From positions 34,056 through 98,055 of the IMG/VR virus record IMGVR_UViG_3300049846_001717: a DNA stretch of 64,000 nucleotides; one strand, written 5' to 3'. The notes beneath the pieces are model-generated. The model was not told where the DNA came from and ran no database searches. It was given only the letters and a program-made list of their open reading frames with translations. Origin of the DNA: a virus. Position 1 is the stretch's first letter. The number at the start of each line of letters is the position of its first letter. Made by a program: the position numbers and the translations under genes. Shown here in pieces: positions 5,491 through 60,479 of the stretch.

Positions 5491-5494
5491 AAGT

Positions 5495-5570
5495 CCGCCC
5501 AGTAGGAGTTGAACCTACGTGCAACCAACTAGCCTTTCTACCGTGTATCAGACGGAGGGCATATGGGCGG
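5495..5570 (-). tRNA. atypical tRNA, probably Ile(GAU)
   Basis: Acceptor CCGCCCA/TGGGCGG and T-arm GTAGG-TTCAACT-CCTAC are clear. The likely anticodon loop CTGATAC in CCGT/ACGG gives GAU, but there is little room for a D-arm. The same odd layout recurs at 6079-6153. Confidence 0.65.
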
Positions 5571-6002: not shown

Positions 6003-6074
6003 GCTAACGGTCAGATTCGAACTGACGGCATCCTCATTACAAGTGAGGTGCATTGGCCTCTATGCTACGTTAGC
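6003..6074 (-). tRNA. tRNA-Thr(UGU)
   Basis: Acceptor GCTAACG/CGTTAGC, anticodon loop CTTGTAA in CCTCA/TGAGG, T-arm GTCAG-TTCGAAT-CTGAC. Confidence 0.93.
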
Positions 6075-6078
6075 AAGT

Positions 6079-6153
6079 CGGCCCGACTGGAGTTGAACCA
6101 GTGTGCACCGTCTAACCTTTCAACCGCTTATCAGGCGGAGGGTATACGGGCCG
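6079..6153 (-). tRNA. atypical tRNA, probably Ile(GAU)
   Basis: Acceptor CGGCCCG/CGGGCCG, T-arm ACTGG-TTCAACT-CCAGT, anticodon loop CTGATAA in CCGC/GCGG. It shares the core CCCTCCG..CTGATA..CGGT with the copy at 5495-5570, and like it has no obvious D-arm. Confidence 0.65.
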
Positions 6154-11652: not shown

Positions 11653-13275
<1,623 letters not shown>

Positions 13276-38461: not shown

Positions 38462-38518
38462 AATATGCCACGGGACCGCCGCCGTGGCAACTCCCACAGG
38501 TTTCGTTACAATCGACGG
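38462..38518 (-). promoter_or_regulatory. boxed promoter
   Basis: TTGCCA, 17 bp, CATATT; box at 38504-38518, directly after hairpin GGTGGTGAC/GTCACCACC of the upstream unit. Confidence 0.7.
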
Positions 38519-40292: not shown

Positions 40293-40319
40293 CGTCGTAC
40301 TCCGTTGGGGTGTGACTGT

Positions 40320-40367
40320 AATATAGGGCCATTCTGAAATAAGTCAAGCGGTTGTTACAATCGACGG
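40320..40367 (-). promoter_or_regulatory. boxed promoter
   Basis: TTGACT, 16 bp, TATATT; box CCGTCGATTGTAACA at 40353-40367. Confidence 0.75.
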
Positions 40368-40374
40368 TGACGCG

Positions 40375-40696
40375 CAAGAAAAACGGCCATTCCGTCGAAT
40401 GGCCGCTTTCCCGGCGGTGGTTCCTTGCCGCCTCGCTCTTCCCGTATGACCCTTAGACTTATGTTTCGCGGCGTCACGAGTCTTGGCGCCTTCTGCTCGA
40501 TCTAGCTCGGAGGGACTGCGATTTCAGTCAATACGTAAAGAACTGGTGATTCCTCTTTTGTTGGTACACTTTATTTTTTCGTTCCGATATTTTTACTGTG
40601 CCTCGGAACGGGCGGCCCGACTACTCTGGTCAGTTCCTACAGATTCAATATCTCATTGATGTACCCGTTGGTGAGGGGTGTCAGTTGAGGTTTACG
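40375..40696 (-). ncRNA. ~320-nt non-coding transcript
   Basis: Promoter at 40702-40730 and a strong intrinsic terminator at 40378-40406 (GCGGCCATTC/GAATGGCCG then TTTTTCTT) bound an interval with no credible CDS. Internal stems include CGTTCCGA/TCGGAACG and GGCGG/CCGCC. Best read as a stable small RNA; no known family recognised. Confidence 0.6.
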
Positions 40697-40943
40697 ACAG
40701 GAATGTACCACGGGGACGAATGAAAGTCAAGAGGCGTGACGCTTCGTGTTCACGCTCGAGATGATCGACGAGATCCAGTGCGAGCTCCTTCGCCACCGTC
40801 ACGTTGTCCTCTTTCATGTGTCGGATGCACCGGTTGAGGTCACGGATCTGCTTGCGGAGTCGCTTGATCTTCCGCACGTGCTCCGGGTACTTCATGAGCC
40901 GCTTCTCGTCCATCAACTTGTCCGCACGTTCTCGAGCGTTCAT
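40692..40943 (-). CDS. basic coiled-coil protein, 83 aa
   Basis: Highly charged helix throughout (KIKRLRKQIRDLNRCIRHM). Start overlaps the upstream stop (TGATG). Likely nucleic-acid or protein binding; unknown. Confidence 0.65.
   Translation of the reverse strand: MNARERADKLMDEKRLMKYPEHVRKIKRLRKQIRDLNRCIRHMKEDNVTVAKELALDLVDHLEREHEASRLLTFIRPRGTFLS
40702..40730 (-). promoter_or_regulatory. promoter of the small RNA
   Basis: TTGACT, 17 bp, TACATT; overlaps the last codons of the 40692-40943 gene; no box. Confidence 0.7.
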
Positions 40944-41179
40944 CAGATCCTCTCGATCAGGAGATCGGCCTTGAGCAGTTCCGGCGTGGTCATGCGGAGT
41001 CCCTGCTTGCGGAGCGCCTTGAGCCGACCCACGAGCGTGGTACGGATGGCCGGCATCGCGTCACGCTCATTCTTGACCTTGACACCGTAGACGAACGTGC
41101 TGATCACATCGATCGACAGATCGATCGTCTGCTTCGTCTTGATCTCGCGGGGCTGTTCGATCGTCACCTTGAAGTTCAT
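40943..41179 (-). CDS. hypothetical protein, 78 aa
   Basis: Basic, N-terminal beta strands then a helix with Leu/Arg. Leader of the standard length and CTGAGCAGC before ATG. Unknown. Confidence 0.65.
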   Translation of the reverse strand: MNFKVTIEQPREIKTKQTIDLSIDVISTFVYGVKVKNERDAMPAIRTTLVGRLKALRKQGLRMTTPELLKADLLIERI

Positions 41180-41205
41180 ATGCTGCTCAGTTGGGGTATG
41201 GGAGA

Positions 41206-41234
41206 AAGCTACTGCGGTTCGGTCAGGAAGTCAA
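41206..41234 (-). promoter_or_regulatory. promoter, no box
   Basis: TTGACT, 17 bp, TAGCTT; lies at the 3' end of the SprT gene. Confidence 0.62.
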
Positions 41235-41669
41235 GCGGTCCCATTCGATCATCCGTTCGTGGATAGGCAGGTGCCGGCACTTCGGGCACGCCCCACGGAT
41301 CCGGCGGTGACGCTTAACTGTGAAGTTACAGTGACGACATGTACCGACGACAGTACGTTCGACATTCATTACGCCACACCGTTCTCCCGTATCGCCGAGA
41401 GCGATGGCCTTCGCCCGCCACACTGCGTCGTGCCCGTGGCCATGACCGACGATGGCATGTGCGAGCTCATGCGCCACGACCTGGGTGGCTCGCTTGAGGC
41501 CCATCGGAAGCACGTGCACCGAAACTTCGATGGTCTTACGGTCGTATCGGCAGACCCCGAGTCGTGTCTTGTTCGTGTTGAATCGGAAGCGCCACCCGAC
41601 GAGGTTGTGGCGCTTGATCTCGGCTTCGGCGAGCTTGGTCACGGTGCGCTGCAGGGCAAGGTTTTCCAT
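41223..41669 (-). CDS. SprT-family zinc metallopeptidase, 148 aa
   Basis: VAHELAHAIVGHGHGHDAVW gives HExxH plus a third His ligand; a C-terminal zinc ribbon follows (CRHCNF, CPKCR). SprT/SPRTN proteins cut proteins bound to DNA; phage members are common. Full-length for the family. Leaderless start. Confidence 0.88.
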   Translation of the reverse strand: MENLALQRTVTKLAEAEIKRHNLVGWRFRFNTNKTRLGVCRYDRKTIEVSVHVLPMGLKRATQVVAHELAHAIVGHGHGHDAVWRAKAIALGDTGERCGVMNVERTVVGTCRHCNFTVKRHRRIRGACPKCRHLPIHERMIEWDRLTS

Positions 41670-41675
41670 GTCCGT

Positions 41676-41734
41676 AATATACAGTGATGTCCGATTAAGT
41701 CAATAGTGACTTTTGATTTCGTTACAATCCGTGG
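41676..41734 (-). promoter_or_regulatory. boxed promoter with leaderless start
   Basis: TTGACT, 16 bp, TATATT, six bases, ATG; box variant CCACGGATTGTAACG at 41720-41734. Confidence 0.72.
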
Positions 41735-41737
41735 CCC

Positions 41738-41962
41738 TTAGCTCGTGCACAACCGGCACGAGCAGACCACTGGCGGACTGAACCCCACCGCGGCATTCAT
41801 CGGATCCTCTTCGGCGGCGAGCTTGCATCCGGCCTCGCGCATTTCCGTCTCCTGTTCCGTGATGTGCCGGTTGTAGTCTCGGCACTGCTGTGAACAGAGG
41901 ATGTCCCCATGTGGCTCGCCGTCCGTCTCGACCCAGGTTCCGCAGATGATGCACCGTTCCAT
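41738..41962 (-). CDS. zinc-finger protein, 74 aa
   Basis: CIICGTWVETDGEPHGDILCSQQC is a DUF2116/MYND-like knuckle with four Cys; a second CSC-RLC pair closes the C-terminus. Probably metal-binding adaptor. Confidence 0.7.
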   Translation of the reverse strand: MERCIICGTWVETDGEPHGDILCSQQCRDYNRHITEQETEMREAGCKLAAEEDPMNAAVGFSPPVVCSCRLCTS

Positions 41963-41974
41963 GTTCGATGGTCC

Positions 41975-42115
41975 TCAGCAGGCGTTGGCCGCGCGGTGGT
42001 ATTCCTTGGCGATTCGAAGCAGACGGATCGATTCGTCCTCACGACCGGCAGCATTCTCCAGGTCGGCCCACCGAAGGTATTGGTTCCCCAGTCGCTCGAG
42101 TTGATCGCGGGTCAT
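41975..42115 (-). CDS. helical protein, 46 aa
   Basis: ATG at 42115, stop TGA at 41975. TPR-like pattern (LRWADLENAAGREDESIRLL) though too short for a repeat domain. Confidence 0.6.
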   Translation of the reverse strand: MTRDQLERLGNQYLRWADLENAAGREDESIRLLRIAKEYHRAANAC

Positions 42116-42116
42116 G

Positions 42117-42314
42117 TTAGGCCTCCAGGCCACAGGCGGTGAGGAACTTGTTCCGGTCGAACCGCGGGTTCTCCCGCTCGAGATCGTCGGCCACTTCCTC
42201 GACCGTGGTTTCCCACTGATCCTTCGCGCCGGCCTGACGTTCGTCGTTCGACGGCAGGTGAAGACGGGAGGACCGAAGGGCCGAGGCGATGAGTTCGTAA
42301 TCCTTGCGAGTCAT
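42117..42314 (-). CDS. hypothetical protein, 65 aa
   Basis: Soluble helical protein with YELIASALRSSR and DLERENPRFDRNKFL; the pattern is common in phage early proteins. Function unknown. Confidence 0.68.
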   Translation of the reverse strand: MTRKDYELIASALRSSRLHLPSNDERQAGAKDQWETTVEEVADDLERENPRFDRNKFLTACGLEA

Positions 42315-42341
42315 TCGATACTCCGTGTGGGGTGTGAAAGA

Positions 42342-42394
42342 AATATAATAGACTCTGGCGGGCTGGCAACAGCAAGTTTCGTTACAATCGACGG
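42342..42394 (-). promoter_or_regulatory. boxed promoter
   Basis: TTGCCA, 16 bp, TATATT; box CCGTCGATTGTAACG at 42380-42394; leader ends CACGGAGTATCGA. Confidence 0.75.
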
Positions 42395-42406
42395 ACCATC
42401 GTGAGA

Positions 42407-42550
42407 CTATCTCACGATGATACGGGCGTCATACCCATCGTGATCGATGAGCGACCGCCGAACTTCCTCGATCGTGTATCCCGTGAACCACACCGTATCG
42501 ATGTGGCGACCGTTCAGATACACGGTATAAGCACGAGTGTTGGGTTTCAT
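42407..42550 (-). CDS. small DNA-contact-like protein, 47 aa
   Basis: ATG at 42550, stop TAG at 42407. YTVYLNGRHIDTVWF strand pair then TIEEVRRSLIDHDGY helix: the small 'beta-beta-alpha' layout frequent in phage proteins. Unknown. Confidence 0.6.
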   Translation of the reverse strand: MKPNTRAYTVYLNGRHIDTVWFTGYTIEEVRRSLIDHDGYDARIIVR

Positions 42551-42750
42551 ATGGCCCGTCCGATGATTTTGATCGTGGTACGGGGCGAGTTCAGGCCGAG
42601 GCTTTCACGTGCGATGATCTTGGCGTAATCGCACCGAGTCCGCACCAGATCTTCGGCATACTGCTCCGATTCGGTATCGACGGTGAATACCTCGGCCGTT
42701 TCGGCGACTTCGCCTTCGTGTCGATGGCCGCCGACGACGATGTAGAACAC
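42547..42750 (-). CDS. hypothetical protein, 67 aa
   Basis: GTG at 42750 just after the upstream stop with AAGGTGG before it. Beta strands with VGGHRHEGEVAE. Unknown. Confidence 0.58.
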   Translation of the reverse strand: MFYIVVGGHRHEGEVAETAEVFTVDTESEQYAEDLVRTRCDYAKIIARESLGLNSPRTTIKIIGRAI

Positions 42751-42751
42751 G

Positions 42752-43069
42752 TTAGTCCACCTTGAGCGAGAGGTACGCGGGACCGACATCGTACATCACC
42801 GTACGACCCTTCCGCGTCTGCGTCACGAACCCGGCCTCGGTCGCGGCGGAGAAGATGTACGCACCCCATCCCCGCACCGACGAAGTGTTCTGCGAGTTGA
42901 TCCCGAAGACGTCCTGCAGGATCTGGGCACGGGTGCGGGGACCGTTGACGTAGAGGTAGAACGTGATCCGACGAAGACGGGACTTCGGGTTCGACGGCGA
43001 CTTGGCGAGGTTCAGGCCGTTGTGCTTGATGAAACCGAAGGGGCGGTTCGTGCGACGGGTCGGGTACAT
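42752..43069 (-). CDS. winged-helix-like protein, 105 aa
   Basis: Basic N-terminus, then a wHTH-type pattern: LRRITFYLYVNGPRTRAQI.., AATEAGFVTQTRKGR. Possibly a transcription factor; own boxed promoter. Confidence 0.65.
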   Translation of the reverse strand: MYPTRRTNRPFGFIKHNGLNLAKSPSNPKSRLRRITFYLYVNGPRTRAQILQDVFGINSQNTSSVRGWGAYIFSAATEAGFVTQTRKGRTVMYDVGPAYLSLKVD

Positions 43070-43095
43070 TGTAGCTCCGTGTCGGGTGTGAGTGT

Positions 43096-43164
43096 AATAT
43101 AATAGGGTCTATCGGTCTGGCAACAGCGAATTTTGCAAAATCCGATTTTCGTTACAATCGACGG
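43096..43164 (-). promoter_or_regulatory. boxed promoter
   Basis: TTGCCA, 16 bp, TATATT; box CCGTCGATTGTAACG at 43150-43164, 26 bp beyond the -35, the widest spacing type. Confidence 0.72.
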
Positions 43165-43193
43165 AGTGCCAGGCACCCCGACGGAGTGCCCTT

Positions 43194-43412
43194 TCATCGA
43201 GTCCTCAGACAGGAGATGTCGGTGTCGTAGATGATGTAACAGACCACGCCTTCCGATCGGTCGTACACCTTCCGAAGCGCGCTGTCCTCGAACCGTTGGA
43301 CCGCGTGGGATCGACGCGTCGGACCATCGACGAACTTCGGGATCGTGATCGCGGCGAGGATGCCGATGATGACGACGACGATGAGCCACTCGAGCGGTGG
43401 GAGATTCTTCAT
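43194..43412 (-). CDS. pilin-like single-TM protein, 72 aa
   Basis: Residues 7-30 read LEWLIVVVIIGILAAITIPKF, cut here to its key features: a Glu near the start of the helix, IVVVIIGILAA and TIPKF, closely like the N-terminal helix of type IV pilins and pseudopilins. The usual Gly cleavage site before it is missing. C-terminal domain is short with two Cys. It may mimic pilin or simply be a membrane peptide. Confidence 0.65.
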   Translation of the reverse strand: MKNLPPLEWLIVVVIIGILAAITIPKFVDGPTRRSHAVQRFEDSALRKVYDRSEGVVCYIIYDTDISCLRTR

Positions 43413-43447
43413 ACGGTACGGTCCTCATTGGTGGAGTTCATAGTCGT

Positions 43448-43500
43448 AATATACCACATATGCTGAAGAAGGCAACAGCGAGTTTCGTTACAATCGACGG
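43448..43500 (-). promoter_or_regulatory. boxed promoter
   Basis: TTGCCT, 16 bp, TATATT; box at 43486-43500, immediately after the terminator at 43505-43545. Confidence 0.74.
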
Positions 43501-43504
43501 GAAC

Positions 43505-43548
43505 ACGCACGACAACGGGCACCAGCCTCGTGCCGATGCCCGTTGCGT
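43505..43548 (-). terminator. terminator hairpin of the RNA cluster
   Basis: Minus strand AACGGGCATCGGCACGAGG..TGGTGCCCGTTG stem, ending the non-coding transcript from 44163. Confidence 0.65.
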
Positions 43549-43549
43549 T

Positions 43550-44158
43550 TCTTTAATCTCGGATTCTTAGGATTGACTACCCGCGGATCACCGAGCCAAA
43601 TCCGATCCCATTGTAGTATGGGCCTGCTCAGTAGACTGCGGCGCCTACTGAACGATTGAGTGACGGTTTCTCGATCTACCGCCAACGTCCTGCATTGTGA
43701 AGTCTGCCCCTGCGGGGACTTGAACCCCGATTCTTTCGATATCACCGTACTCGCTCGCGCTTCTGCAGAGCCCTTCGAGCTTTCGGTATTAATGAGACTG
43801 TGGGGGACGATCCCACCTACCCACGGCACTAGCCGATATATCGACCGAATCGATACGGTCATAGGGTTGCTCCAACCGTTTCGAGGACGGTTTCAGAGTC
43901 TCACTACAACTTAGTGTTCGGGTTAGGCGGCGTTCCCTTGACCACTTCGGGATTGCTCTTACCTCCATGTCCCACTAGCCTGAGCGGTAGTGTGGTGGAC
44001 CCGATCGGACCACCCGAACACCTACAAGTTACTGCGTGGTGTTTCGATTGTCAAGTGTGACGGATGGCTCGAAAGACTCACGGCCGCCGCGCTTACCCCA
44101 TCCCCTTTCCGTTTCTTTCAACGGGTGTCTAGTGGGTTCCGTTCACACCTATCACACT
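43550..44158 (-). ncRNA. 600-bp non-coding RNA cluster with tRNA-like elements
   Basis: A boxed promoter (44163-44190) and the terminator at 43505 bound DNA with no credible CDS. It contains a canonical T-arm CGGGG-TTCAAGT-CCCCG (43709-43725) without a matching 5' acceptor; a 111-nt element (43793-43903) with 7-bp terminal stem TGAGACT/AGTCTCA, a T-arm-like GTGGG/CCCAC and a hairpin ACCGT/ACGGT; and a 10-bp stem gtgttcgggt/acccgaacac (about 43914-44024). Confidence 0.5.
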
Positions 44159-44162
44159 GGTA

Positions 44163-44229
44163 AATATATAGTGGAGACTGCCAGTGGCAACAGCGAGTTT
44201 CACCCTTGACTTTTTGTTACAATCGACGG
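44163..44229 (-). promoter_or_regulatory. boxed promoter of the RNA cluster
   Basis: TTGCCA, 16 bp, TATATT; box CCGTCGATTGTAACA at 44215-44229. Confidence 0.72.
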
Positions 44230-44258
44230 AAATCAGATTTCTCCGATTTCGTTGGACG

Positions 44259-44783
44259 TTACTTAACGGCCCACTTGAACCACGCCGAACGAGCCTCGTC
44301 CTCGGGCAGAACATTGAGGATCACACCCCCGGCCGCCCACGACGGCACGTACTCCGCCTGCAACACCTCACGAAGTCGAGTCGGTTCCATCGAACGAGAT
44401 GAGAGAATCTGATTGTCGGGCATGAGCACCAACAGCTTGGTGCTCAGTTCCTTTCTGAACACACGCTCGAGACGAATCTGCTCCTTGCGCAGCACCTGTT
44501 CGTGTACGAGGTTGTCGATCACATCCTCGGCGGACTCGGACTGATGGACGAACGGCGAGCCGTCCTCGTCGAGGATGTCCGTGACGACTGGCGGCAGTGA
44601 CTTCGCGTAGGCCACGAGATCGGCACGAACAGGGTTCGAAATGCTGAGTTCGGTGGGTCCGCCGCGACCGTAGTTCCTCGCGGACCCCGCCAGCTTTCCA
44701 TCGATCAAGATGGAGGCGCGGAACGCGTACGTTTCCTCGGAGAGCGATGGGAAGTGTCGGAAGTTTCTCAGGCTGACATTCAT
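44259..44783 (-). CDS. hypothetical protein, 174 aa
   Basis: Soluble alpha/beta protein; N-terminal half beta-rich (ASILIDGKLAGSARNYGRGG), central acidic helix, C-terminal Trp-rich. Resembles DNA-nick or substrate-modulating phage proteins only in size; family not recognised. Single gene with own promoter. Confidence 0.72.
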   Translation of the reverse strand: MNVSLRNFRHFPSLSEETYAFRASILIDGKLAGSARNYGRGGPTELSISNPVRADLVAYAKSLPPVVTDILDEDGSPFVHQSESAEDVIDNLVHEQVLRKEQIRLERVFRKELSTKLLVLMPDNQILSSRSMEPTRLREVLQAEYVPSWAAGGVILNVLPEDEARSAWFKWAVK

Positions 44784-44808
44784 TGCGGCTCCATGTGGGT
44801 ACGACAGA

Positions 44809-44856
44809 AATCTATATCAATGATTATGGAAGTCAAGCGATTGTTACAATCGACGG
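44809..44856 (-). promoter_or_regulatory. boxed promoter
   Basis: TTGACT, 16 bp, TAGATT; box CCGTCGATTGTAACA at 44842-44856. Confidence 0.72.
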
Positions 44857-44865
44857 GAAAACCAA

Positions 44866-45180
44866 ATGGGCCATCCTCCGTATTCCAGAGGATGACCCAT
44901 ATCGCTGAATCGGGCGGGCCCATGGTCCCATTTCGTCCATCACTGGCCCGACACTCTAGCGTGGCGACACCGCTGTTCCATCCTAGCCACATCACATTGT
45001 CCCCGTGGGACAAATCCCATGGCTTCGGTTTGCCGTGAAACCCGACACCGACCTTGCGCCATCGATTTATATACCGATATGGGCATTAGCGGTGACAATC
45101 TTGTGTCACTCGACTTCGATCCAACATCGCTTTACCCACTACCTCGATCCGTCGGCTACGAGGGGCTCATCGGTTCCCAC
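44866..45180 (-). ncRNA. ~315-nt non-coding transcript
   Basis: Promoter 45187-45215 and a terminator hairpin at 44869-44900 (GTCATCCTC/GAGGATGGC then TTTGGTTTT) enclose no supported CDS. Internal stems include CCATGGGATT/AATCCCATGG-like pairs near 45005. Same size and layout as the RNA at 40375-40696 but no obvious sequence match. Confidence 0.55.
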
Positions 45181-45186
45181 ACTACA

Positions 45187-45235
45187 AGTATATAGCGGTG
45201 ACGCAGGGAAGTCAAGCGGTCGTTACAATCGACGG
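45187..45235 (-). promoter_or_regulatory. boxed promoter of the second small RNA
   Basis: TTGACT, 17 bp, TATACT; box CCGTCGATTGTAACG at 45221-45235. Confidence 0.74.
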
Positions 45236-45239
45236 AAAG

Positions 45240-45285
45240 TGAAACGGGACGCTTCCCCGGATGAGGTAGAAGCGCCCCGACTGAT
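45240..45285 (-). terminator. terminator after 45366-45605 gene
   Basis: Stem GGGCGCTTC/GAAGCGTCCC followed by GTTTCACTTT, then the box. Confidence 0.68.
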
Positions 45286-45365
45286 TTGGCCGATCAGTTT
45301 ATCCGTTTCGTGGATTAGTCGTCGGAGTCATTCGCTATCGCAGGGCGACTCGGGAAGTAAACCCA

Positions 45366-45605
45366 TTACTTCGGTGCCAACATTGCCATGAAATCCGAGA
45401 CGAGTCGGTTTCGAACGGCTTCGGTGATCCACACCGTGTAGACGTTCTGATCGTCATCCACGAACACGAGCTTGGTGTTGCCGTTCGGCTTCTGCTTGAG
45501 GACGACGACCTCGACCATCGTGTGATCCAGCGCGACCACCTGATTGATGTGTCCACTGACCGCCGAGTCGAGAGACACAGGGACATCTTGGCTGATCTTG
45601 AGCAT
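45366..45605 (-). CDS. hypothetical protein, 79 aa
   Basis: ATG at 45605 with GAGGA upstream; longer frames to 45842 run through tRNA-like DNA and are rejected. Beta-rich with KLVFVDDDQNVYTV. Unknown. Confidence 0.65.
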   Translation of the reverse strand: MLKISQDVPVSLDSAVSGHINQVVALDHTMVEVVVLKQKPNGNTKLVFVDDDQNVYTVWITEAVRNRLVSDFMAMLAPK

Positions 45606-45859
45606 TTGCTGAATTCCTCGAATGGTGATCTCGTTCACCAAGTAGACGGTTCGAGTTGAACGCCCCCGAACGAGCGTGAAATTAGTTGACCGACTTGCTG
45701 AATTTGTAGCTTCACGAGCAAGATTATCACTCTTGTGGGATATACCCAAATCGGCTTGACGGCGATGAACCCGTTGTTCCGATAACCCGATCCGATGAGC
45801 TGACCGTGATGGACTTCGAACCCCCACATCACTTTCCGGCATTTGTCTACACGGTCAAT
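45606..45859. other. spacer with tRNA-like fragments
   Basis: No CDS supported. A T-loop-like GGGGGTTCGAAGTCC at 45808-45826 has short acceptor-like pairing CCGTG/CACGG; it may be a truncated tRNA. Confidence 0.3.
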
Positions 45860-45931
45860 AGCTCTTACGGGAATCGAACCCGTCTCTGCTCCTTGAAAGG
45901 GAGCCGTCCTCTACCGATAGACGAAAGAGCC
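45860..45931 (-). tRNA. tRNA-Glu(UUC), second copy
   Basis: Acceptor GGCTCTT/AAGAGCT, anticodon loop CTTTCAA in GCTCC/GGAGC, T-arm ACGGG-TTCGATT-CCCGT. Confidence 0.9.
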
Positions 45932-45938
45932 CTGCAAT

Positions 45939-45998
45939 GGTCAGTGAAGGATTTGAACCCTCGAGCGCCTGACGGGCGATTCCGGCTTACGCCTGACC
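45939..45998 (-). tRNA. 60-nt tRNA-like gene lacking a D-arm
   Basis: Acceptor GGTCAG/CTGACC and T-arm GAGGG-TTCAAAT-CCTTC are clear, but only 29 nt lie between acceptor and T-arm, room for one arm (CGCC/GGCG, possible anticodon GUC with C33). Confidence 0.5.
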
Positions 45999-46009
45999 GT
46001 GGTGGTGTG

Positions 46010-46045
46010 GGGACTGGTGACCTATCAAGTCACCAATCTTATTTT
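46010..46045 (-). terminator. hairpin with A/T tail
   Basis: Stem TTGGTGACTT/AGGTCACCAG on the minus strand at 46018-46038, between the non-coding RNA and the tRNA pair. Confidence 0.45.
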
Positions 46046-46235
46046 ACTTCCGTCACACCCCGGAAGGTCTGATCTAGGCTCAGACTTTGAAACCCTATCG
46101 ACATTTTCGTTCTTCGACAGTATACGCCGCTGATGGTCGCGGATCACCTTGGGTTTGATTTTACGTCCCAACCCTGAGACGGATATAGGGAACGGTACCT
46201 GTCGGCTTCGAAGGCATAACGACTTCCCGCCCCAC
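46040..46235 (-). ncRNA. putative non-coding leader RNA
   Basis: Between the promoter at 46242-46270 and the tRNA genes there is ~200 bp with no convincing CDS; a hairpin AAAGTCTGA/TCAGACCTT lies at 46065-46094. Confidence 0.35.
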
Positions 46236-46241
46236 ACCTTC

Positions 46242-46270
46242 AATCTACCCTCATGCCTCCGAAAAGGCAA
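46242..46270 (-). promoter_or_regulatory. promoter of the tRNA-Glu unit
   Basis: TTGCCT, 17 bp, TAGATT; no box. Confidence 0.65.
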
Positions 46271-46279
46271 GTGGGTCGA

Positions 46280-46585
46280 TTACTTCCGGCCCGTCGCCGC
46301 CCGATACGCGTCGGCGATCAGGAGCACCAGCTCGATCGTCTGGAACTGATCGGGCACGTAGTCGTCGAGCAGCGTCTTGAGGCGCGTATCGTGGTTGACG
46401 TTACCATCGGCGTCATCGAAGACCCACTGATCCGTGAACCACGGACCGACCCTATCGCCGTCCTGCGTGAGATAGGTCAGACCCCTGGGCACGAACGCGA
46501 TCTTGTTATGGAACTTGGCCACCTCGGGCGGCATCACGATCACGACGACCTTTGCGGCACGGGGACGAGCGGTAGAACGGGGCAT
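46280..46585 (-). CDS. hypothetical protein, 101 aa
   Basis: Basic N-terminus (RSTARPRAAK), then a soluble alpha/beta domain. Ends just before the tRNA-unit promoter. No family. Confidence 0.66.
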   Translation of the reverse strand: MPRSTARPRAAKVVVIVMPPEVAKFHNKIAFVPRGLTYLTQDGDRVGPWFTDQWVFDDADGNVNHDTRLKTLLDDYVPDQFQTIELVLLIADAYRAATGRK

Positions 46586-46607: not shown

Positions 46608-46880
46608 TTATGGCAGAGGAAGGATCATGATGCCGTCCGTATTACAGACGGTACTCGATGTGGCACGTTTGCCGCACTGATTATCCACACCACCACCGAA
46701 CGACTTGGCGATCTTCACTATCGTGCTTCTACGGCCGTATCCACCACCGATCAGTTTATGAACGCTGATGTGAGTGATGCGACCGACGGCGATGGCACCG
46801 CTCTGATTGTAGACGACCTCTTGGTCCACTTCGAGTGGACGACCGAGAACATCGACGGCGGCATCAGTGGCGGATTTCAT
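46608..46880 (-). CDS. hypothetical beta-rich protein, 90 aa
   Basis: LEVDQEVVYNQSGAIAVGRITHI looks like an SH3/KOW-type small barrel; two Cys near the end. Leaderless start. Confidence 0.64.
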   Translation of the reverse strand: MKSATDAAVDVLGRPLEVDQEVVYNQSGAIAVGRITHISVHKLIGGGYGRRSTIVKIAKSFGGGVDNQCGKRATSSTVCNTDGIMILPLP

Positions 46881-46992: not shown

Positions 46993-48189
46993 TTACGGCG
47001 TTTCCTCATCCCACGGCAGATCCGACATCTGTTCCTCGGCCATGTCGAACGGCGTGGACTTCGCGCCATCGACCGGGATGTACTTCTGCGCCATCTTGCG
47101 GACGAACGACCGCGGGGACGTTGCGCCACCGGCGTCACTGTACTGCGGGTACACCGTGACCTCGAGCGCGTCCACGAGCGAGAAGCCGTCGTACAGCAGC
47201 TCCGACAGCTCGATGGTGGTGCGCGTCGAGACACCATCGGGGATGTTCGATTCCTCACCGGCGGCCTCGGTACGCGTGGCGACGGCGATGTTCACGACCG
47301 CCTGCAGCAGTCGGTCCTCCACACCATCGGCGAACCGTTCCCGCAGGAGTTCCAGCTCATCGTCGCGGCCGAGCGGTTCCACTTCCACGATGCTGAATCG
47401 GTCGGCGAGGGCGCCGTCGAGCACGCGCGTGGCGGTGTACTGCGACCCGATATTGGCCGTCGCGATGAACGTCACGCCGTCCGCAACGTCGATCGTCGGC
47501 GTCTTGGGATCCTCGTCCACGCGAAGGAACCGCTGCTTCTGGTCGAGGACCGGCATCAGGAGGTTCCACGCGTCGGGATGGGCACGCGTCAGCTCGTCGA
47601 GCAGGACGATGGCGTTCGGCGTCTGGATCGCCTTAGCGAAGTACGACAGCGCGGTGAAAGTGCCCTCACCGGCGGCGAAGTGCGTGTTGCCGATGATGAC
47701 CGAACGCGGGTCCTGTGTGGACCCGAGCGGAATGTTGAAGAGCGGACGGTCGAGCACCTTGGCGAGCGTGAACGCGAGCACCGTCTTGCCGGTGCCCTTC
47801 GGTCCCGTCACCATGATGTTCTTGCCGCGAAGGACGGAACGAACAGCGAACCGCCACTTCACATCGCTCATCTTGTACTCGGTGGGCCGGATCGCCGACG
47901 CGTTCGTGATGAACTTCACGATCTCGGCGTGGTCGGTGTCGCCGGCACGCGTCGGCGTGGTGAGCTGTTCGTTGAACTCGGACACGGGGCAGTTGCGCCA
48001 CTGGGCGCCACCCGCCGGCATCTTCGTCAGCTTGACACAGCCGGTATTCTCCACGGCGCGGCGCAGCTGATGATTCTCGAACACGGACGTCACATCCTTG
48101 CCGTCCGGCGTGATGGCGAGGTAGTCGCCGGCATCGCTCTTCGTGATACGAACGACGGTGTTGAAGGCGAGCGAGATCTTCTCGGACAT
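46993..48189 (-). CDS. CobS/MoxR-like AAA+ ATPase, 398 aa
   Basis: Walker A GPKGTGKTVLA near residue 140, Walker B AIVLLDELTRA near 205, sensor-1 FIATANIGSQY near 250 and arginine ALADRFSIVEVEP near 270: the CobS/MoxR pattern. Such ATPases work with VWA-domain partners to remodel proteins or insert metals. The VWA-containing gene lies 1.1 kb upstream, supporting a CobS-CobT-like pair; 'cobS/cobT' genes are known in large phages with unclear roles. Confidence 0.9.
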   Translation of the reverse strand: MSEKISLAFNTVVRITKSDAGDYLAITPDGKDVTSVFENHQLRRAVENTGCVKLTKMPAGGAQWRNCPVSEFNEQLTTPTRAGDTDHAEIVKFITNASAIRPTEYKMSDVKWRFAVRSVLRGKNIMVTGPKGTGKTVLAFTLAKVLDRPLFNIPLGSTQDPRSVIIGNTHFAAGEGTFTALSYFAKAIQTPNAIVLLDELTRAHPDAWNLLMPVLDQKQRFLRVDEDPKTPTIDVADGVTFIATANIGSQYTATRVLDGALADRFSIVEVEPLGRDDELELLRERFADGVEDRLLQAVVNIAVATRTEAAGEESNIPDGVSTRTTIELSELLYDGFSLVDALEVTVYPQYSDAGGATSPRSFVRKMAQKYIPVDGAKSTPFDMAEEQMSDLPWDEETP

Positions 48190-48242
48190 TGATTGGGCTC
48201 CCTAGAAGCCTTGAGGTAACTACGACTTACGATGAATGACGA

Positions 48243-48299
48243 AAGGTATAGCGGTCCCCTGGTAAAGTCAAGGGGGTCAAACGGACCGATTGTAACGAA
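48243..48299 (-). promoter_or_regulatory. promoter of the AAA+ gene with inverted box
   Basis: TTGACT, 17 bp, TACCTT; the box CCGATTGTAACG (48285-48296) is in the opposite orientation to all other clear copies. Confidence 0.7.
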
Positions 48300-48911
48300 A
48301 AATCGGGTATTGCTCAAAATGATGACATTGCCGTAGTGCTGTTGGAGTAGCCGCGATAAATATGATAGTATTATCGCTCACCAACCCTTCGACTCCGCAT
48401 CCTCATTATCTGAGAGAGATCTATCGATCCCCCCTCGGACTTGCACCGAGATTGTACGGGTTAAAAGCCCGCAAGATTAGCTACGGATACAGATTCGTGT
48501 GCGCTCTACACCTACACTACGGCAATATCGACATCTCAAAAAACACTGCTTTGAAACATCCAACCTACCACATCTTTCAACACATAGTAATCACAATATA
48601 ACCGAGCTGCTGAATCCGGTGCACAGGGGCCGGGCTAGGTACGTGTGACTGACTCCATTCGCACAGTCGGGCGGCACTTGAAGGGTGTGCCGTGCCCTAT
48701 CGTCGATCGTTACGTCATGGGAATGATTCTCCAGGGTTCCTACTTGGCTGGCCGAGGCGTTCGGGCCGCCGTCCTACACTCACATCAGATCGGTCGAGCA
48801 GGGGACTCGACATGCCGATCATTGGTACGATACTATCTGTGGCGCGGTGACGCGCGCGTCCACTCGTACCTACTGGTGCTCCGCTTGGACTGAGCCGAGC
48901 CGTGTGAGCGG
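48300..48911. ncRNA. 600-bp gene-free interval with a tRNA-like element
   Basis: No credible CDS. 48426-48490 holds an anticodon arm CGGG-CTTTTAA-CCCG (Lys UUU) and T-arm CTCGG-TGCAAGT-CCGAG on the minus strand, but acceptor pairing is poor. The rest (48600-48900) is GC-rich and folds locally. Probably a third RNA cluster. Confidence 0.45.
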
Positions 48912-49271: not shown

Positions 49272-51332
49272 TTATTCTCCCGTCAAAAGACGATTGAGCG
49301 TGCGGACGATGCCGTTGACCTGGTCCGCCTTCACGAACGCCGCCGACTTGCCGTACATCTGACGGAACCCGGCGTGCGTGGTTTCGTGGTCACTGATGAA
49401 ATACGACAACACGTTGATATCCGCGAGGCGGAACTGGTTCATGAGACGGCGCGTGTGATCCCACGCCGGCTGACCGCTGTACGAATACGACCGACTCTTG
49501 TGGATGAACTGGAACATCGGTTCGCCGTCGGACAGATTGATGAAATACTTCGTCCCCGCGGCCTTGCCCATCGCCAGCAGCTCATCCTTCACCGCCTCAA
49601 AGCACAGGCCTTCCGGCGTGCCACCTGCGACCGAGATATACGGCACGACCGACCGCAACTGATTGAACGTGTGCCGGCGCGAATCGTAGAGAATCGCGAG
49701 GTTCGCCGCTTCGTGATCGGCATCCCGCACCGCGACCACGCAGTTGAGGGTCCGCGTCTTTTCGGCGGCGTAAGCAATCGCCACGGCCACCGCCATCGCG
49801 TTGATGTACTTGTCCCCGTCCATCGATCCCGACAGGTCAACGTCGATCCAGACGGTGCAGGGTTCCTTCCGTTCCACGAACGTATGCGAGAACACCGAGG
49901 ACTGGCCGTAACCGAGGCCGGCGATCAGGCGCTTGTCCAGCCGGCCCGACTGCTGACGGGTGAACGTCAACGGCGATTCGTCCTGCGTCACCGCGATTCG
50001 TGCCGCGAGGATCTGACCCATCCGCATCCCCTGCGACAACGCCTTCACCGAGTCGGGATTCTTGTTCCCGCCACGATAGTTCCGCGTGTAGGAGAACGGG
50101 AACACCTTCGACTGCGCCGTCTTCGCGGACACATCCCGATAGATGATGACCTTCGCCTTGACGTCCTTGGCAATGAAATCGCCGTCAACTTCCTTGATAT
50201 CCGCCTTCGTATCCGAGAGCTGATCGAGCTGCGCCTGGACCTCGGCGGACGCCTTCTTCTTGTCGGTGTCGTGGTTGAGGAACTTGCGCTGCCGATCGAT
50301 GGCCCGGCCGACACGACCGAAATCCATATTGGGCAAATCGCCGATCTGGTTGCCGTCCTTCCCCTCACCCTTGCCCTTCGTCGGCCTGTTCTGGTTCTCG
50401 TAGGTGAGGCTATGCTTGAGCATGATCTCCACGATCTTCACCGCATCCACGAACAACGACGGCAACTGATCCGCGGTCGCGGCGGACGGATTACGGAACG
50501 GGAACATCTTCCACTTCGGGTCCGCATCGCCACGACCCTCCAGGCCCTTCGGCGTGAGGTTGGCGATCTTGCGGATCTCCGCGAGGCCCGGCATGACGGC
50601 GGGATTATAATGCTTATTCGTCATATTGATGACGAACAGCATATAGTTCTCGACGCACAGGGTGTGGAACCGCGGATCCTGCATCGCCTTGTCGATATCG
50701 GCGGAATGCCAATACTTGTCGTACATCGAATCGTAGTAGGGCTGGTAGCCCGGCGCCGACTGGTACATCCAGTAGTCGATGCGACGATCCTCGAGCACGT
50801 TCATCGCCATCTGCACGAGCTCGTACACCGAACCCTTCTCATTGGCACCGAGCGCCGACGCGGCGACCGGCGCGGCCGCCGGCCTCATCGGAATACCGAG
50901 TCGATTCGCGTCCGATTCGATCGACGTCTTGAGCTCCCGCACAAACGCCTCGAAGAGCGCGGACATCTCCGGCAGGAACTTGAACACGTAGTTCGACAGG
51001 AGACAGTGCGCCGCTTCGTGCAGCGCCGTGCCGACGAGCGAGTCCATGCTCGTCGGGTCCGTATCGGCCGAGATCACGATGGTCTTGCCGTCCGTGTAGG
51101 ACTGCTGACCACCCGAGAACACGACCGGATATTCCTGACCCGTAGCGATCTTCACGAACCCGGCGACCGAGCGCTGAATGCTGCGCAGATGCTCGAGGTA
51201 TTCGATGGACCCTTCGCTCACCTTCGACTGCAGGCCGGTGCCCGACTTCCCCATCCAATAGGACGAGTGCGAGGCCTTCACCGCGTCGGCCTTCGCCTTG
51301 AGGCGGGCCGCGATATGGGGGTTGCTATTCAT
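49272..51332 (-). CDS. CobT-like VWA protein with HExxH motif, 686 aa
   Basis: N-terminal metalloprotease-like motif TALHEAAHCLLS near residue 95 (HExxH), a long central region with acidic and charged linkers (about 300-400), and a C-terminal VWA domain with the MIDAS motif DVDLSGSMDG near residue 495 and SDGEP near 610. CobT and similar VWA proteins bind CobS/MoxR ATPases. The added HExxH suggests proteolysis of a substrate presented by the AAA+ ring. Leaderless start. Confidence 0.85.
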   Translation of the reverse strand: MNSNPHIAARLKAKADAVKASHSSYWMGKSGTGLQSKVSEGSIEYLEHLRSIQRSVAGFVKIATGQEYPVVFSGGQQSYTDGKTIVISADTDPTSMDSLVGTALHEAAHCLLSNYVFKFLPEMSALFEAFVRELKTSIESDANRLGIPMRPAAAPVAASALGANEKGSVYELVQMAMNVLEDRRIDYWMYQSAPGYQPYYDSMYDKYWHSADIDKAMQDPRFHTLCVENYMLFVINMTNKHYNPAVMPGLAEIRKIANLTPKGLEGRGDADPKWKMFPFRNPSAATADQLPSLFVDAVKIVEIMLKHSLTYENQNRPTKGKGEGKDGNQIGDLPNMDFGRVGRAIDRQRKFLNHDTDKKKASAEVQAQLDQLSDTKADIKEVDGDFIAKDVKAKVIIYRDVSAKTAQSKVFPFSYTRNYRGGNKNPDSVKALSQGMRMGQILAARIAVTQDESPLTFTRQQSGRLDKRLIAGLGYGQSSVFSHTFVERKEPCTVWIDVDLSGSMDGDKYINAMAVAVAIAYAAEKTRTLNCVVAVRDADHEAANLAILYDSRRHTFNQLRSVVPYISVAGGTPEGLCFEAVKDELLAMGKAAGTKYFINLSDGEPMFQFIHKSRSYSYSGQPAWDHTRRLMNQFRLADINVLSYFISDHETTHAGFRQMYGKSAAFVKADQVNGIVRTLNRLLTGE

Positions 51333-51472: not shown

Positions 51473-52528
51473 TTACGAGAGATCCTCGATCTCCTGCTCG
51501 AGCTCGTCCGCGAGATCCTCATCGTCCATCTGCTCATCCGAGAGGTTCGTCGCGTCACCACCGAGGGCGATGATCTGGTTGATGCGGTCGGCGCGATCGA
51601 GGATCCGCGCCTCGACCTTCGCGAGCACCTTGCGCTTGCGCTCGAGTTCGGCGGTGTTGTCCACCGCCTTCACACCGACACCGTTCGCCAGATCCTGCGG
51701 GGTGTAGACTTCCTTGTGCGGGAGCTTGGCGAAGTCCCCGATCTCCGCGATCGGCGTGACCACGGCGGCGCGACCCTTCTGGTTGTTGTAGTCGGACGGG
51801 ATGCTGACCACGTTCGCCGGGTTGACGAGCATGACGAGCAGGCGGTGCGACCCACGACCCGCCCACGTGCTCGCGTACTCATGCGAGGCGAAATGGAGGC
51901 CGTACGAGCACGTGCGGTCACGGTCATCATCGACCGCGTTGCGCGGCATCGACACCTGCAGTTCGCCGTCCACGATCTGCATCGTGACGTTCCCGGCGGT
52001 CTTGGCGGTCGCGTACTCCGCCTTCTCCGCGTCGGTCATGAGCGACACCGGCTTGTAGAACACGCGACCCGAGTGGATATCGCGGTACGACTCCTGGACC
52101 GACTTGTACGCGACGATGTTGCCGTCGAGATCGATGAGGAACCCGTTGGCGACGCAGAACAGGAGCAGTTCGTTGCGGGCCGCGGCGGACGGGTTCTGCT
52201 CCACCTTCCGGAGAAACTTGAAGATGGGATCCGCCGAGTGACCGGCATCGATCATCGCGAGCACCTTGCTCGTGATCGCCGGGGAATACGGCGTCCCCTT
52301 GAAGGTGATCAGGTCGTTGACGAGAGCGAAATCCTTGTCGGTCGCGAGGAAGTTCCGCACCGAGGTCCGCAGGTCGGACAGCGCCGGGATGGCACCGAAG
52401 TCCTCGTTCTTGAGCGCGTCGAGGATCTTCGCGTAGTTAGGGTGGTCGGTCGGGATGACCGAGAGGACGCCGGCGAGGAACAGGGAAATACCGGCGGGGG
52501 TGATGAGGTACGCGGGCTTGCTGGACAT
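51473..52528 (-). CDS. rIIB: rIIB-like protein, 351 aa
   Basis: Residues about 115-240 carry the rIIB core: NGFLIDLDGNIVAYKSV, VDDDRDRTCSYGLHFAS and VMLVNPANVVSIPSDY. Helical N-terminal third and a charged coiled-coil tail with ILDRADRINQII. In T4, rIIB with rIIA counters lambda Rex exclusion and affects lysis timing; molecular role unknown. ATG at 52528 has CGGAGC upstream. Promoter lies in the end of rIIA. Confidence 0.85.
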   Translation of the reverse strand: MSSKPAYLITPAGISLFLAGVLSVIPTDHPNYAKILDALKNEDFGAIPALSDLRTSVRNFLATDKDFALVNDLITFKGTPYSPAITSKVLAMIDAGHSADPIFKFLRKVEQNPSAAARNELLLFCVANGFLIDLDGNIVAYKSVQESYRDIHSGRVFYKPVSLMTDAEKAEYATAKTAGNVTMQIVDGELQVSMPRNAVDDDRDRTCSYGLHFASHEYASTWAGRGSHRLLVMLVNPANVVSIPSDYNNQKGRAAVVTPIAEIGDFAKLPHKEVYTPQDLANGVGVKAVDNTAELERKRKVLAKVEARILDRADRINQIIALGGDATNLSDEQMDDEDLADELEQEIEDLS

Positions 52529-52574
52529 TGTGTTGCTCCGATTGTGGGAAAGAGAATGGAACGGGGTTATCTGA

Positions 52575-52603
52575 ATACTAACGCATCGACGCGATATAGT
52601 CAA
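52575..52603 (-). promoter_or_regulatory. promoter of rIIB
   Basis: TTGACT, 17 bp, TAGTAT, inside the 3' end of the rIIA-like gene; no box. Confidence 0.6.
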
Positions 52604-54803
52604 GTACCACCTGCCGGTTTCCCGGCACGTTATGGCGGTAGCTATTCGCCCACATGGTTCCGATGAGCTGAAACATGGGAAACTCGTCGATCACGGACCG
52701 ATACGCCTCCGCCATCGTCTGCGGCGGCGTCTTGAGCGTCATCGACTTATGCACCTTCGCCTGATTGGCCGGATCCCGACGCAGGAACCGATTCACCAGT
52801 TCCATCGTCTTGTCCGACTTCGCGGTGTGCGTCCGTTCGCAGACCGTGTGCAGATTCGCGAACAACGGATGCACCTTGCCCAACTGCCAATGCTTGTACG
52901 CCAGCTCATCGAAGTAGATCGCGTCGGCATTGAGCGAGGAATAATAGTAAAACACCGTTTCCCTATTATTCTGCATCCACGATTTCACTTCGGCCTCGAG
53001 CGTGTCCGGCAACGACTTCCACACCGTCGCGTCGAAGTTCGGGATCTCCGCCGACTTGATCCCGTACACGGCCTCCGTGGCACCGAGGATCTTCAGCTGT
53101 CGCGCCAACACGATCATGTCGGTCATGTAGTCGAGACTGATATACCCGTACCGATTGGAGTAGGTGTCCAACGTGAGCGGAACGTAGTAATACATCTTAG
53201 CGCCCGTCGGCACGTTGACGCGAGACTCCCATCGCTGGCTTGCCGTCGAGAACCGATACAACGTGTCCTTGCCGACGCCCCGCAACGACGGCGGCACCTT
53301 GTACCCCGTGAGGGCCGAGGCCTTCACGATGAGATCCGCCGGCATCCCGCCGAAGAAATCCTGAATCTGCGCGTCCGTGATCTTCGTGGACTTGATGATG
53401 ATGGCGTGACCGACCTTGTGCCCGTACCGTGCGGTACGACCGCCCATCGTCTTGTTGACGAGCCGATCGTAGAGCAACGCCTTGGTCGCCGTGACGGTGC
53501 CCTTCGTCAGGTCATCCCGCACCACCACCGTCTCATTGCCCGGCCGCATCGAGATCTTGTCCACCGTCCGCTCGATGATCGCGGACTTGTCGCTGTTCTC
53601 CGTACCGTACACCGTGATCGTCGCCGAGGGGTCCAACGCCTTGAGCGCCTTGAGCGACCGCACCACGCCTTCCGTGTGGTTCACCGTAGACTGCTTCCAC
53701 TGCATCGTCGGCACCACCGACGCCAGGTGCGGGATCTCATTGAACGCCAACATCATCGTGAGCGCCTCCCATTCCGTCGCACACGCCGCGCACGACTTGG
53801 AGACTTCGACTGCCAGCTCCGGCAGTAACGTGGCGATCGCCCGACGAATGGCGTCCACCGTGCGGTCGGTGTATTTCAGATTATCACGCGATGGCACGAT
53901 ATCGACCGACCCGACCGGCAGGAACAGATCGATATGGTTGTACGAGAAGAAATATCGCTTCTCGTAATCGCCGTGATGCACCGCGCGGGGGAACATGGCG
54001 TCCGTCACCTGCACCGTGTACGGCACATTGCCCATGATCACGGTGAGATTGCCGGCGTTCCCGTACGGGTAGTGCGGACGGCGCGGGCGCTCCATCTTCC
54101 GCAGACCCCACCCACCGGCACGAAACTGATACGCGACCGGCTGAATCGGCGTGTGCGTACCTTCGACCGTGAGTGCGATGGGGAAATGCGGCGCGTACTT
54201 ACGCGCGGCCTGATGCACCTTGTCGAGATCGCCACGACGGATGGGGATACGAATGGTGACGCCGGTGTGCGCCATCGTCGGCGTGGACTGCACGTGATCG
54301 AGGCGCGGGACACTATCGGTCCCGATCGCCGCCATGAACAGATGCGACTGTCCATCCTTGCGGGCTTCCACCGTCCACGTTGCACCACCGTTGTAGCAGA
54401 ACGCCGTCTTGGAGCCGAGGCCGAAACCACCAACCTCATCGTTCGATCCGCTCTTGGTGCTCTCACCGTAGGACGTATAGACGTTCCACACGGTTTCCAT
54501 GTCCATGCCGATGCCGAAGTCCTGGAACACCAGCTCCGGTGCCATCGTCGTCGGCAGACTGAGCACCGGCGCCGTGAAGTCCGGCGACTTGACCAGCTGC
54601 TCGATCGTCATCCCACGGACCCGTGCGAGCGCGAGATACGCGTCGTACATATTCGTGAGATATTCTCGCACCATCGCGTCGATAGGATCGGCGTAGAGGC
54701 CGGAGAGCACCGTCATGATATGTGCACCGGCCTTCACCGTGAACGCACGACTGGCCTGCATCCCTGCGGCCGTGACCTTCCGAGCTTCCGTGATGATCTG
54801 CAT
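52578..54803 (-). CDS. rIIA: rIIA-like GHKL ATPase-fold protein, 741 aa
   Basis: N-terminal GHKL (Hsp90/MutL-type) nucleotide site: DAMVREYLTNMYDAYL near residue 45, FQDFGIGMD near 95, and GGFGLGSKTAF near 125. Length and neighbouring rIIB match T4 rIIA. These proteins are membrane-associated modulators of lysis and exclusion. AAGGAAC precedes the ATG at 54803. Confidence 0.86.
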   Translation of the reverse strand: MQIITEARKVTAAGMQASRAFTVKAGAHIMTVLSGLYADPIDAMVREYLTNMYDAYLALARVRGMTIEQLVKSPDFTAPVLSLPTTMAPELVFQDFGIGMDMETVWNVYTSYGESTKSGSNDEVGGFGLGSKTAFCYNGGATWTVEARKDGQSHLFMAAIGTDSVPRLDHVQSTPTMAHTGVTIRIPIRRGDLDKVHQAARKYAPHFPIALTVEGTHTPIQPVAYQFRAGGWGLRKMERPRRPHYPYGNAGNLTVIMGNVPYTVQVTDAMFPRAVHHGDYEKRYFFSYNHIDLFLPVGSVDIVPSRDNLKYTDRTVDAIRRAIATLLPELAVEVSKSCAACATEWEALTMMLAFNEIPHLASVVPTMQWKQSTVNHTEGVVRSLKALKALDPSATITVYGTENSDKSAIIERTVDKISMRPGNETVVVRDDLTKGTVTATKALLYDRLVNKTMGGRTARYGHKVGHAIIIKSTKITDAQIQDFFGGMPADLIVKASALTGYKVPPSLRGVGKDTLYRFSTASQRWESRVNVPTGAKMYYYVPLTLDTYSNRYGYISLDYMTDMIVLARQLKILGATEAVYGIKSAEIPNFDATVWKSLPDTLEAEVKSWMQNNRETVFYYYSSLNADAIYFDELAYKHWQLGKVHPLFANLHTVCERTHTAKSDKTMELVNRFLRRDPANQAKVHKSMTLKTPPQTMAEAYRSVIDEFPMFQLIGTMWANSYRHNVPGNRQVVLDYIASMR

Positions 54804-59591: not shown

Positions 59592-60479
59592 TTAGAGTCG
59601 GGGATCGTCCGCGAACGCCGTCACGCGAGCCATCATCTCCCATTCGGTCGGGAAGGTGAGGACGTACCCGGCGATCTTGCCGAGGAGACGGAGCGAAACG
59701 GCCGGGATCTGGGTGTAGTGCTTCTCCACCCACGCGACCACTTCTTCCTGCTGACCTTTGGTCAGTCCCTTCTGGATGAGGATACCGTGCTTCCGCGTCA
59801 TGTGCGAGATCCACGCCACCACATCCTCACGCGAATGCAGCTTGAGGTCGAGGTAGACGGCGCGGTCCATGATGGCGCGGTAGTGGACCGCCGCACCCTT
59901 GCGGTCGAGCAGCGCCTCGCCCTGCAGGTCCTTATTCGTGATGAAGATCATCGACCCCTTATACTCGAACTCGGGTTCGATATCCCCAAGCGCCGCCGTC
60001 TCGGACAGCCACGAGATCTTGCGGGTGTCGCCGGTGTCGAGCGCCGCCTTCAGGAGGTTCATGGAATCTTCATCCTCGTACACCGAATCGGTATCGTCCA
60101 GGAGGATGACGTCGTTCTCGCCCTTGAACTTGTAGAGAAGCTTATACAGGCTGATGGGCGTCATCTTGCCGTGAACGTACGTGAAATTGATCTTGTTGCG
60201 TTCCTTCGCCTGATAGAGCAGCGCCTTGATGGTGTGGGACTTACCGACACCCGGCGCCCCTGAGATCACCAACCCACGGGTGCTCCCCTCGATCGCGGTG
60301 ACCGCGAGCTTATACATGACGGAGAACCGCTCCGAGATCTTCGTGATGCGTTCCGCGGGCGTCTCGGTGGACTTGGCGTTGATGATTCGCATGAGCTCCG
60401 CGACCTCATTTGCCGAGGGGCGGCCCCGACGACCTGGGACACCCGCCTTCGCTCGCAACGCCTTGATATCGACCGTCAT
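59592..60479 (-). CDS. AAA-family ATPase, 295 aa
   Basis: ATG at 60479 with CGGAG upstream. Walker A GAPGVGKSHT near residue 75, Walker B DVILLDDTDS near 125, sensor FITNKDL near 185. Resembles DnaC/loader-type phage ATPases that act as helicase loaders or AAA proteins of unknown role; the assignment to replication is only suggestive. Confidence 0.85.
   Translation of the reverse strand: MTVDIKALRAKAGVPGRRGRPSANEVAELMRIINAKSTETPAERITKISERFSVMYKLAVTAIEGSTRGLVISGAPGVGKSHTIKALLYQAKERNKINFTYVHGKMTPISLYKLLYKFKGENDVILLDDTDSVYEDEDSMNLLKAALDTGDTRKISWLSETAALGDIEPEFEYKGSMIFITNKDLQGEALLDRKGAAVHYRAIMDRAVYLDLKLHSREDVVAWISHMTRKHGILIQKGLTKGQQEEVVAWVEKHYTQIPAVSLRLLGKIAGYVLTFPTEWEMMARVTAFADDPRL

What the first reader, a model, noticed from the sequence alone, without database searches (positions are those of the whole stretch)
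40375..45180. Two ~320-nt non-coding transcripts with own promoter and terminator
40375-40696 and 44866-45180 lie between clear promoters and intrinsic terminators and hold no CDS. Similar length, but no sequence match. Early-region, probably abundant small RNAs, possibly host RNA-polymerase or mRNA regulators (6S-like in size).
Basis: partly seen in the sequence, partly recalled or inferred. Interest (0 to 1): 0.65.

Follow-up and report, generated by a model that had tools for sequence, protein, structure and literature searches.

The report
Two orphan early phage small RNAs
A large T4-like phage carries two (in fact at least three) stretches that look like small RNA genes with their own start and stop signals and no protein; they are real as DNA features, but nothing shows that they resemble 6S RNA or any other known RNA.

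Summary
Observation confirmed in silico. Both stretches lie on the minus strand of the early region of a distant T4-like, tRNA-rich phage contig (98 kb). A (~40695 to 40376): sigma70-type promoter TTGACT-17-TACATT, no codon bias in any sense frame, 16-bp terminator stem plus U5. B (~45180 to 44858): TTGACT-17-TATACT, no coding signal, 15-bp stem plus UUUGGUUUU. Stems of at least 12 bp number 13 in the window against 1-3 in shuffles; A's and B's rank second and joint third.

Without the terminator hairpins, A and B fold no better than the phage's coding RNA. They match no Rfam family (E<=5, 6S included), no phage or plasmid record, no relative found, and not each other. "Two" undercounts: a ~650-nt unit C (43.5-44.16 kb) has the same layout, and two further non-coding stretches hold tRNA or tRNA-like sequence. 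A starts with a likeness of this phage's mRNA leader and has no terminator upstream of it, so it may be a decayed gene or a 3'-UTR RNA; B shows neither feature and is the better stand-alone RNA gene.

Best reading: lineage-specific early phage small RNAs acting in trans, target unknown. "6S-like" and "abundant" are unsupported.

The parts
40702..40730 (-). promoter of A, TTGACT-17-TACATT with TG before the -10; lies in the 3' end of the 83-aa gene 40692-40943
   Evidence: sequence
40376..40695 (-). unit A, predicted ~320-nt RNA without CDS
40654..40685 (-). part of A that resembles the phage's mRNA leader (ACAGTCACACCCCAACGGAGTACGACGATG); its ATG is followed by a stop after three codons
   Evidence: shuffle p 0.003, tested after it was noticed
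40377..40412 (-). terminator stem of A, followed by UUUUUCUU
40353..40367 (-). upstream element (CCGTCGATTGTAACA) of the next promoter, just after A
45221..45235 (-). upstream element CCGTCGATTGTAACG, 5 bases before the -35 of B
45187..45215 (-). promoter of B, TTGACT-17-TATACT
44858..45180 (-). unit B, predicted ~320-nt RNA without CDS
44866..44900 (-). terminator stem of B (15 bp), then UUUGGUUUU
44163..44190 (-). promoter of unit C, TTGCCA-16-TATATT
43505..44155 (-). unit C, third non-coding unit of the same layout (~650 nt), with an internal promoter-like site at 44054-44026
43706..43772 (-). tRNA-like T-arm and acceptor inside C (weak, below the family cut-off)
   Evidence: mascRNA-menRNA model, 24.5 bits, E 0.12
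43512..43546 (-). terminator stem of C (15 bp)

Best explanation
A and B are two independent small-RNA genes of the early region of a distant T4-like phage. Shown by sequence: host-type (sigma70) promoter, no protein, strong intrinsic terminator, each read on the minus strand like the genes around it. Inferred: early after infection the host RNA polymerase makes RNAs of ~320 nt from them, which act in trans. A, with a largely unpaired A-rich stretch and a U5 tail, would most likely pair with host or phage mRNA, possibly on an Hfq-type chaperone; B, more closed and without long free stretches, would more likely bind a protein or act as a decoy. Their sequences are specific to this phage lineage, as expected of fast-evolving takeover genes. 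The case is better for B than for A.
For: Promoters and strong terminators at both ends; no codon bias and no tblastx match; B is insulated, lying between two terminators, with an element-bearing promoter and without the mRNA leader; A has unpaired stretches at 40601-40590, 40579-40568 and 40565-40554; a third unit C has the same layout. Known jumbo phages make comparable RNAs (PMC4848604; PMC8545117).
Against: No expression data. No conservation: no homolog in phages, plasmids, Rfam or the one related lineage. No excess structure outside the terminators. No target signal among phage translation starts. A resembles an mRNA leader.
Confidence: 0.5

Rival explanations
1. Remnants or spacers: the places of lost early genes. 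Promoter and terminator survive and may still be used, but the RNA has no function of its own.
For: A's first ~45 nt align with the phage's mRNA leader (p 0.003), with GGGT in place of GGAG and a stop three codons after the ATG; no excess folding; no conservation.
Against: No trace of a former reading frame by codon model or tblastx; B and C lack the leader; the terminators are among the longest stems of the window; phages tend to lose useless DNA (general knowledge).
Confidence: 0.27
2. A is not a gene of its own but the 3'-UTR part of the 83-aa gene upstream (40692-40943), made by read-through and processing as well as from the internal promoter.
For: No terminator between that gene and A; the A promoter lies in the gene's 3' end and lacks the upstream element that other early promoters have. 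phiKZ makes an RNA of this type from the PHIKZ298 3' UTR (PMC8545117).
Against: A has a promoter of 9/12 matches with extended -10 of its own; does not apply to B.
Confidence: 0.13
3. The stretches encode very short proteins missed by the codon model.
For: Small starts exist (A: ATG AGA TAT TGA; B: ATG AGC CCC TCG TAG).
Against: No sense ORF of >=20 aa scores above zero; no good ribosome site.
Confidence: 0.05
4. 6S-like RNAs that bind host RNA polymerase.
For: Only that they are small, probably early and non-coding.
Against: No Rfam 6S match at E<=5; ~320 nt; predicted folds are branched, not a rod with a central bubble.
Confidence: 0.03

Closest known systems
misc_4 RNA of giant phage phiR1-37 (PMC4848604)
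   Same: stand-alone RNA of ~297 nt between genes of a large virulent phage, without ORF, function unproven
   Different: seen by RNA-seq; here only DNA signals. No sequence relation shown (misc_4 itself was not compared by name; no phage record matched A or B)
phiKZ ncRNAs found by Grad-seq (PMC8545117)
   Same: small phage RNAs; the PHIKZ298 3'-UTR RNA resembles the rival reading of A
   Different: ~100 and ~180 nt and confirmed on northern blots; A and B are longer and unconfirmed
Stable RNAs C and D of phage T4 (from memory, not tested)
   Same: non-coding, non-tRNA RNAs of a T4-like phage with unknown role
   Different: those lie in the tRNA cluster and are shorter; A and B lie 30 kb away from the tRNA array with promoters of their own
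6S RNA (RF00013)
   Same: small non-coding RNA
   Different: length, predicted fold and sequence family all unlike
GOLLD and ROOL ornate large RNAs
   Same: occur in phages rich in tRNAs (from memory)
   Different: larger; no Rfam match in this region

Membership tests
6S RNA (RF00013) | match to the family covariance model | tested here: not met
   Rfam scan of 40300-46300 at E<=5 lists only tRNA, mascRNA and snoZ163 matches
6S RNA (RF00013) | rod with a large central bubble, about 180-200 nt | tested here: not met
   A and B are ~320 nt; minimum-energy folds are branched; single-sequence predictions only
6S RNA (RF00013) | binds sigma70 RNA polymerase | not testable with these tools
   needs pull-down
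GOLLD / ROOL | match to the Rfam models | tested here: not met
   no match at E<=5
tRNA / tmRNA | tRNA-like domain | tested here: not met
   no ARAGORN or Rfam call inside A or B; unit C has a weak one
trans-acting phage small RNA | own promoter and intrinsic terminator | tested here: met
trans-acting phage small RNA | no protein encoded | tested here: met
trans-acting phage small RNA | transcript is made | not testable with these tools
   no RNA data at hand
trans-acting phage small RNA | complementary to a target | tested here: inconclusive
   no excess over shuffles for 70 phage translation starts; host unknown

The most novel reading that the evidence does not exclude
A, B and C are members of a lineage-specific set of early phage RNA genes, clustered near noncanonical tRNA-like RNAs, that bind host machinery (ribosome, tRNA or RNA polymerase factors) during takeover.
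Probability: 0.1. Interest if true: 0.6.

Novelty: new member of a known kind. Interest (0 to 1): 0.3.

Why it matters
If expressed, B (and C) would be cleanly delimited small-RNA genes of a virulent T4-like phage, a class known mostly from transcriptomes and with few known functions. Their defined ends would make deletion and pull-down tests simple once a host is at hand. As it stands this is an orphan prediction of an ordinary kind.

Tried and rejected
(1) 6S, GOLLD, ROOL or any Rfam family: no match. (2) Exceptional structure: the z of about -3 vanishes without the terminator hairpin. (3) Homologs by DNA in phages, plasmids and related contigs: none. Relatives were sought in viral contigs by five single proteins and two alignments and in genomes by one alignment; only three contigs of one related lineage came up, too far for RNA comparison. 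The SprT-like hits are other phages that share that one protein, at most two others. (4) Hidden CDS or decayed ORF by codon model and tblastx: none. (5) Similarity of A and B to each other or to other non-coding gaps: none. (6) Antisense action on phage genes: no signal; B's one outlier (gene 46608-46880) pairs with promoter DNA, its longest run being 11 bases against CGCTTGACTTC. (7) The 15-base element in viral contigs: ten single, apparently chance, hits.

Full report
Setting. The window is bases 34056-98055 of a 98-kb virus contig. It comes from a distant T4-like phage: RIIA and RIIB (52578-54803, 51473-52603), a T4 nrdC.10-like protein (59592-60479, 41% identical to Vibrio phage VH7D), GroEL (11653-13272), and, left of the window, a baseplate wedge protein and a tRNA nucleotidyltransferase. 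There are 30 tRNAs at 0.2-11.6 kb and one at 45.9 kb. Megablast finds no similar DNA in 50,697 phage records. The early region (27-62 kb) is mostly minus-strand, with short genes and high GC3. The only relatives found are three contigs of one lineage, chiefly IMGVR_UViG_3300044998_000260 (105 kb, 'G001'), with an AAA protein 61-63% and RIIA 44-46% identical.

Observation. Both units run on the minus strand. A: -35 TTGACT at 40730, -10 TACATT ending 40702, start ~40695, stem 40412-40377 and U5. B: -35 at 45215, -10 TATACT ending 45187, start ~45180, stem 44900-44866, tail UUUGGUUUU. Promoter-like sites are enriched (22 against 5.6 +/- 2.2); terminator-like sites by a loose pattern are not (11 against 10.3). 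With a strict rule (stem of at least 12 bp, loop 3-8) the window has 13 and mononucleotide shuffles 1-3; A's stem is second, B's and C's are tied third. A codon model trained on 30 early genes gives every ORF of at least 20 aa inside A and B a negative score except one 29-aa antisense ORF.

The pair is not alone. Unit C (promoter 44190-44163, terminator stem 43546-43512, ~650 nt, no codon bias) has the same layout, with a second promoter-like site inside (44054-44026) and a T-arm/acceptor tRNA-like piece at 43772-43706 that Rfam scores as a weak mascRNA match. Non-coding stretches 45606-46279 (tRNA-Glu plus a 61-nt D-arm-poor tRNA-like piece) and 48190-48911 (a tRNA-Lys-like piece, by eye) lie close by.

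Structure. As a whole A and B fold 3 sd better than shuffles, but this comes from the terminator: without it A has z -1.55 and B -0.85, against -0.98 +/- 1.11 for coding stretches of the same phage. There is thus no evidence for an elaborate fold. A has largely unpaired A-rich segments between 40601 and 40554; B is more closed.

Relatives. A and B have no match by blastn (words of 11) in phages and plasmids (the listed hits all lie on the tRNA-Glu). They have no significant match in the related contigs by blastn with words of 5, tblastx or nhmmer, nor for B in the genome search, none in Rfam at E<=5 apart from a 34-nt chance match to a snoRNA model in B, and none among the other non-coding gaps of the two phages. 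With relatives at 44-63% protein identity, absence of DNA similarity is expected even for a functional RNA, so this neither supports nor refutes function.

A differs from B. The first ~45 nt of A align to the leader common to the phage's mRNAs (ACAGTCACACCCCAACGGAGTACGACGATG) with shuffle p 0.003; B, C and F give 0.5-0.9 (the likeness was noticed first and tested after). In A the ribosome site reads GGGT instead of GGAG, and the ATG is followed by a stop after three codons. A also lacks a terminator between itself and the 83-aa gene upstream. A may therefore be what is left of a lost gene, or a 3'-UTR RNA. B lies between two terminators, has its own element-bearing promoter and no leader, and is the stronger case for an RNA gene.

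Mechanism. Shown: DNA signals only. Inferred: transcription by host RNA polymerase early in infection, release at the terminator, action in trans. No target signal was found among phage translation starts, and the host is unknown. The 6S comparison fails on family, length and predicted fold. The nearest known things are the misc_4 RNA of phiR1-37 and the phiKZ RNAs, found by transcriptomics and without proven function (PMC4848604, PMC8545117; review PMC12197685).

Incidental. The CCGTCGATTGTAACG element stands 5-26 bases upstream of the -35 of about 25 early promoters, always in sense orientation, and the relative has TGTAACGACCGTGTAACA at the same kind of place: probably a phage-specific upstream promoter element. 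The contig and its relative both carry a tmRNA (tags ANTALPLAA and ANPALALAA) and noncanonical tRNA-like RNAs 80-90% identical between them. These may deserve more attention than A and B.

Noticed in passing
30592-61673, minus strand (e.g. 45221-45235, 42380-42394, 38504-38518): 15-base element CCGTCGATTGTAACG in about 25 copies, one orientation only, just after 3' hairpins and 5-26 bases upstream of the -35 of early promoters (34 matches with up to 3 mismatches against 3.2 by chance). The relative G001 has TGTAACGACCGTGTAACA in the same kind of place. Absent from the left 34 kb of the contig. Possibly the binding site of a phage regulator.
   Followed up: partly
L003:5942-6294 (G000:C1:24842-25194) and L020:2543-2886: Both phages encode a tmRNA by ARAGORN, tags ANTALPLAA and ANPALALAA, next to arrays of more than 40 tRNAs and a CCA-adding enzyme.
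   Followed up: no
5494-5570 and 6074-6151, minus strand: Two noncanonical tRNA-like RNAs without a clear D arm, 80-90% identical to a tandem pair in the relative (G001 54278-54449) although proteins are only 44-63% identical; the second is not called by ARAGORN or Rfam.
   Followed up: partly
45936-46000, minus strand: 61-nt tRNA-like piece (GGTCAG ... CTGACCA) directly before tRNA-Glu; the relative has a similar D-armless piece directly after its tRNA-Glu (G001 ~76425-76360).
   Followed up: partly
46993-48189 and 49272-51332, minus strand: MoxR/CobS-like AAA ATPase and a VWA/CobT-like protein near each other, conserved in the relative with the order swapped.
   Followed up: no
window 1-27000 against 27000-62000: GC content steps from about 0.46-0.55 to 0.55-0.64 and GC3 from ~0.5 to ~0.8 at about 27 kb.
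   Followed up: no
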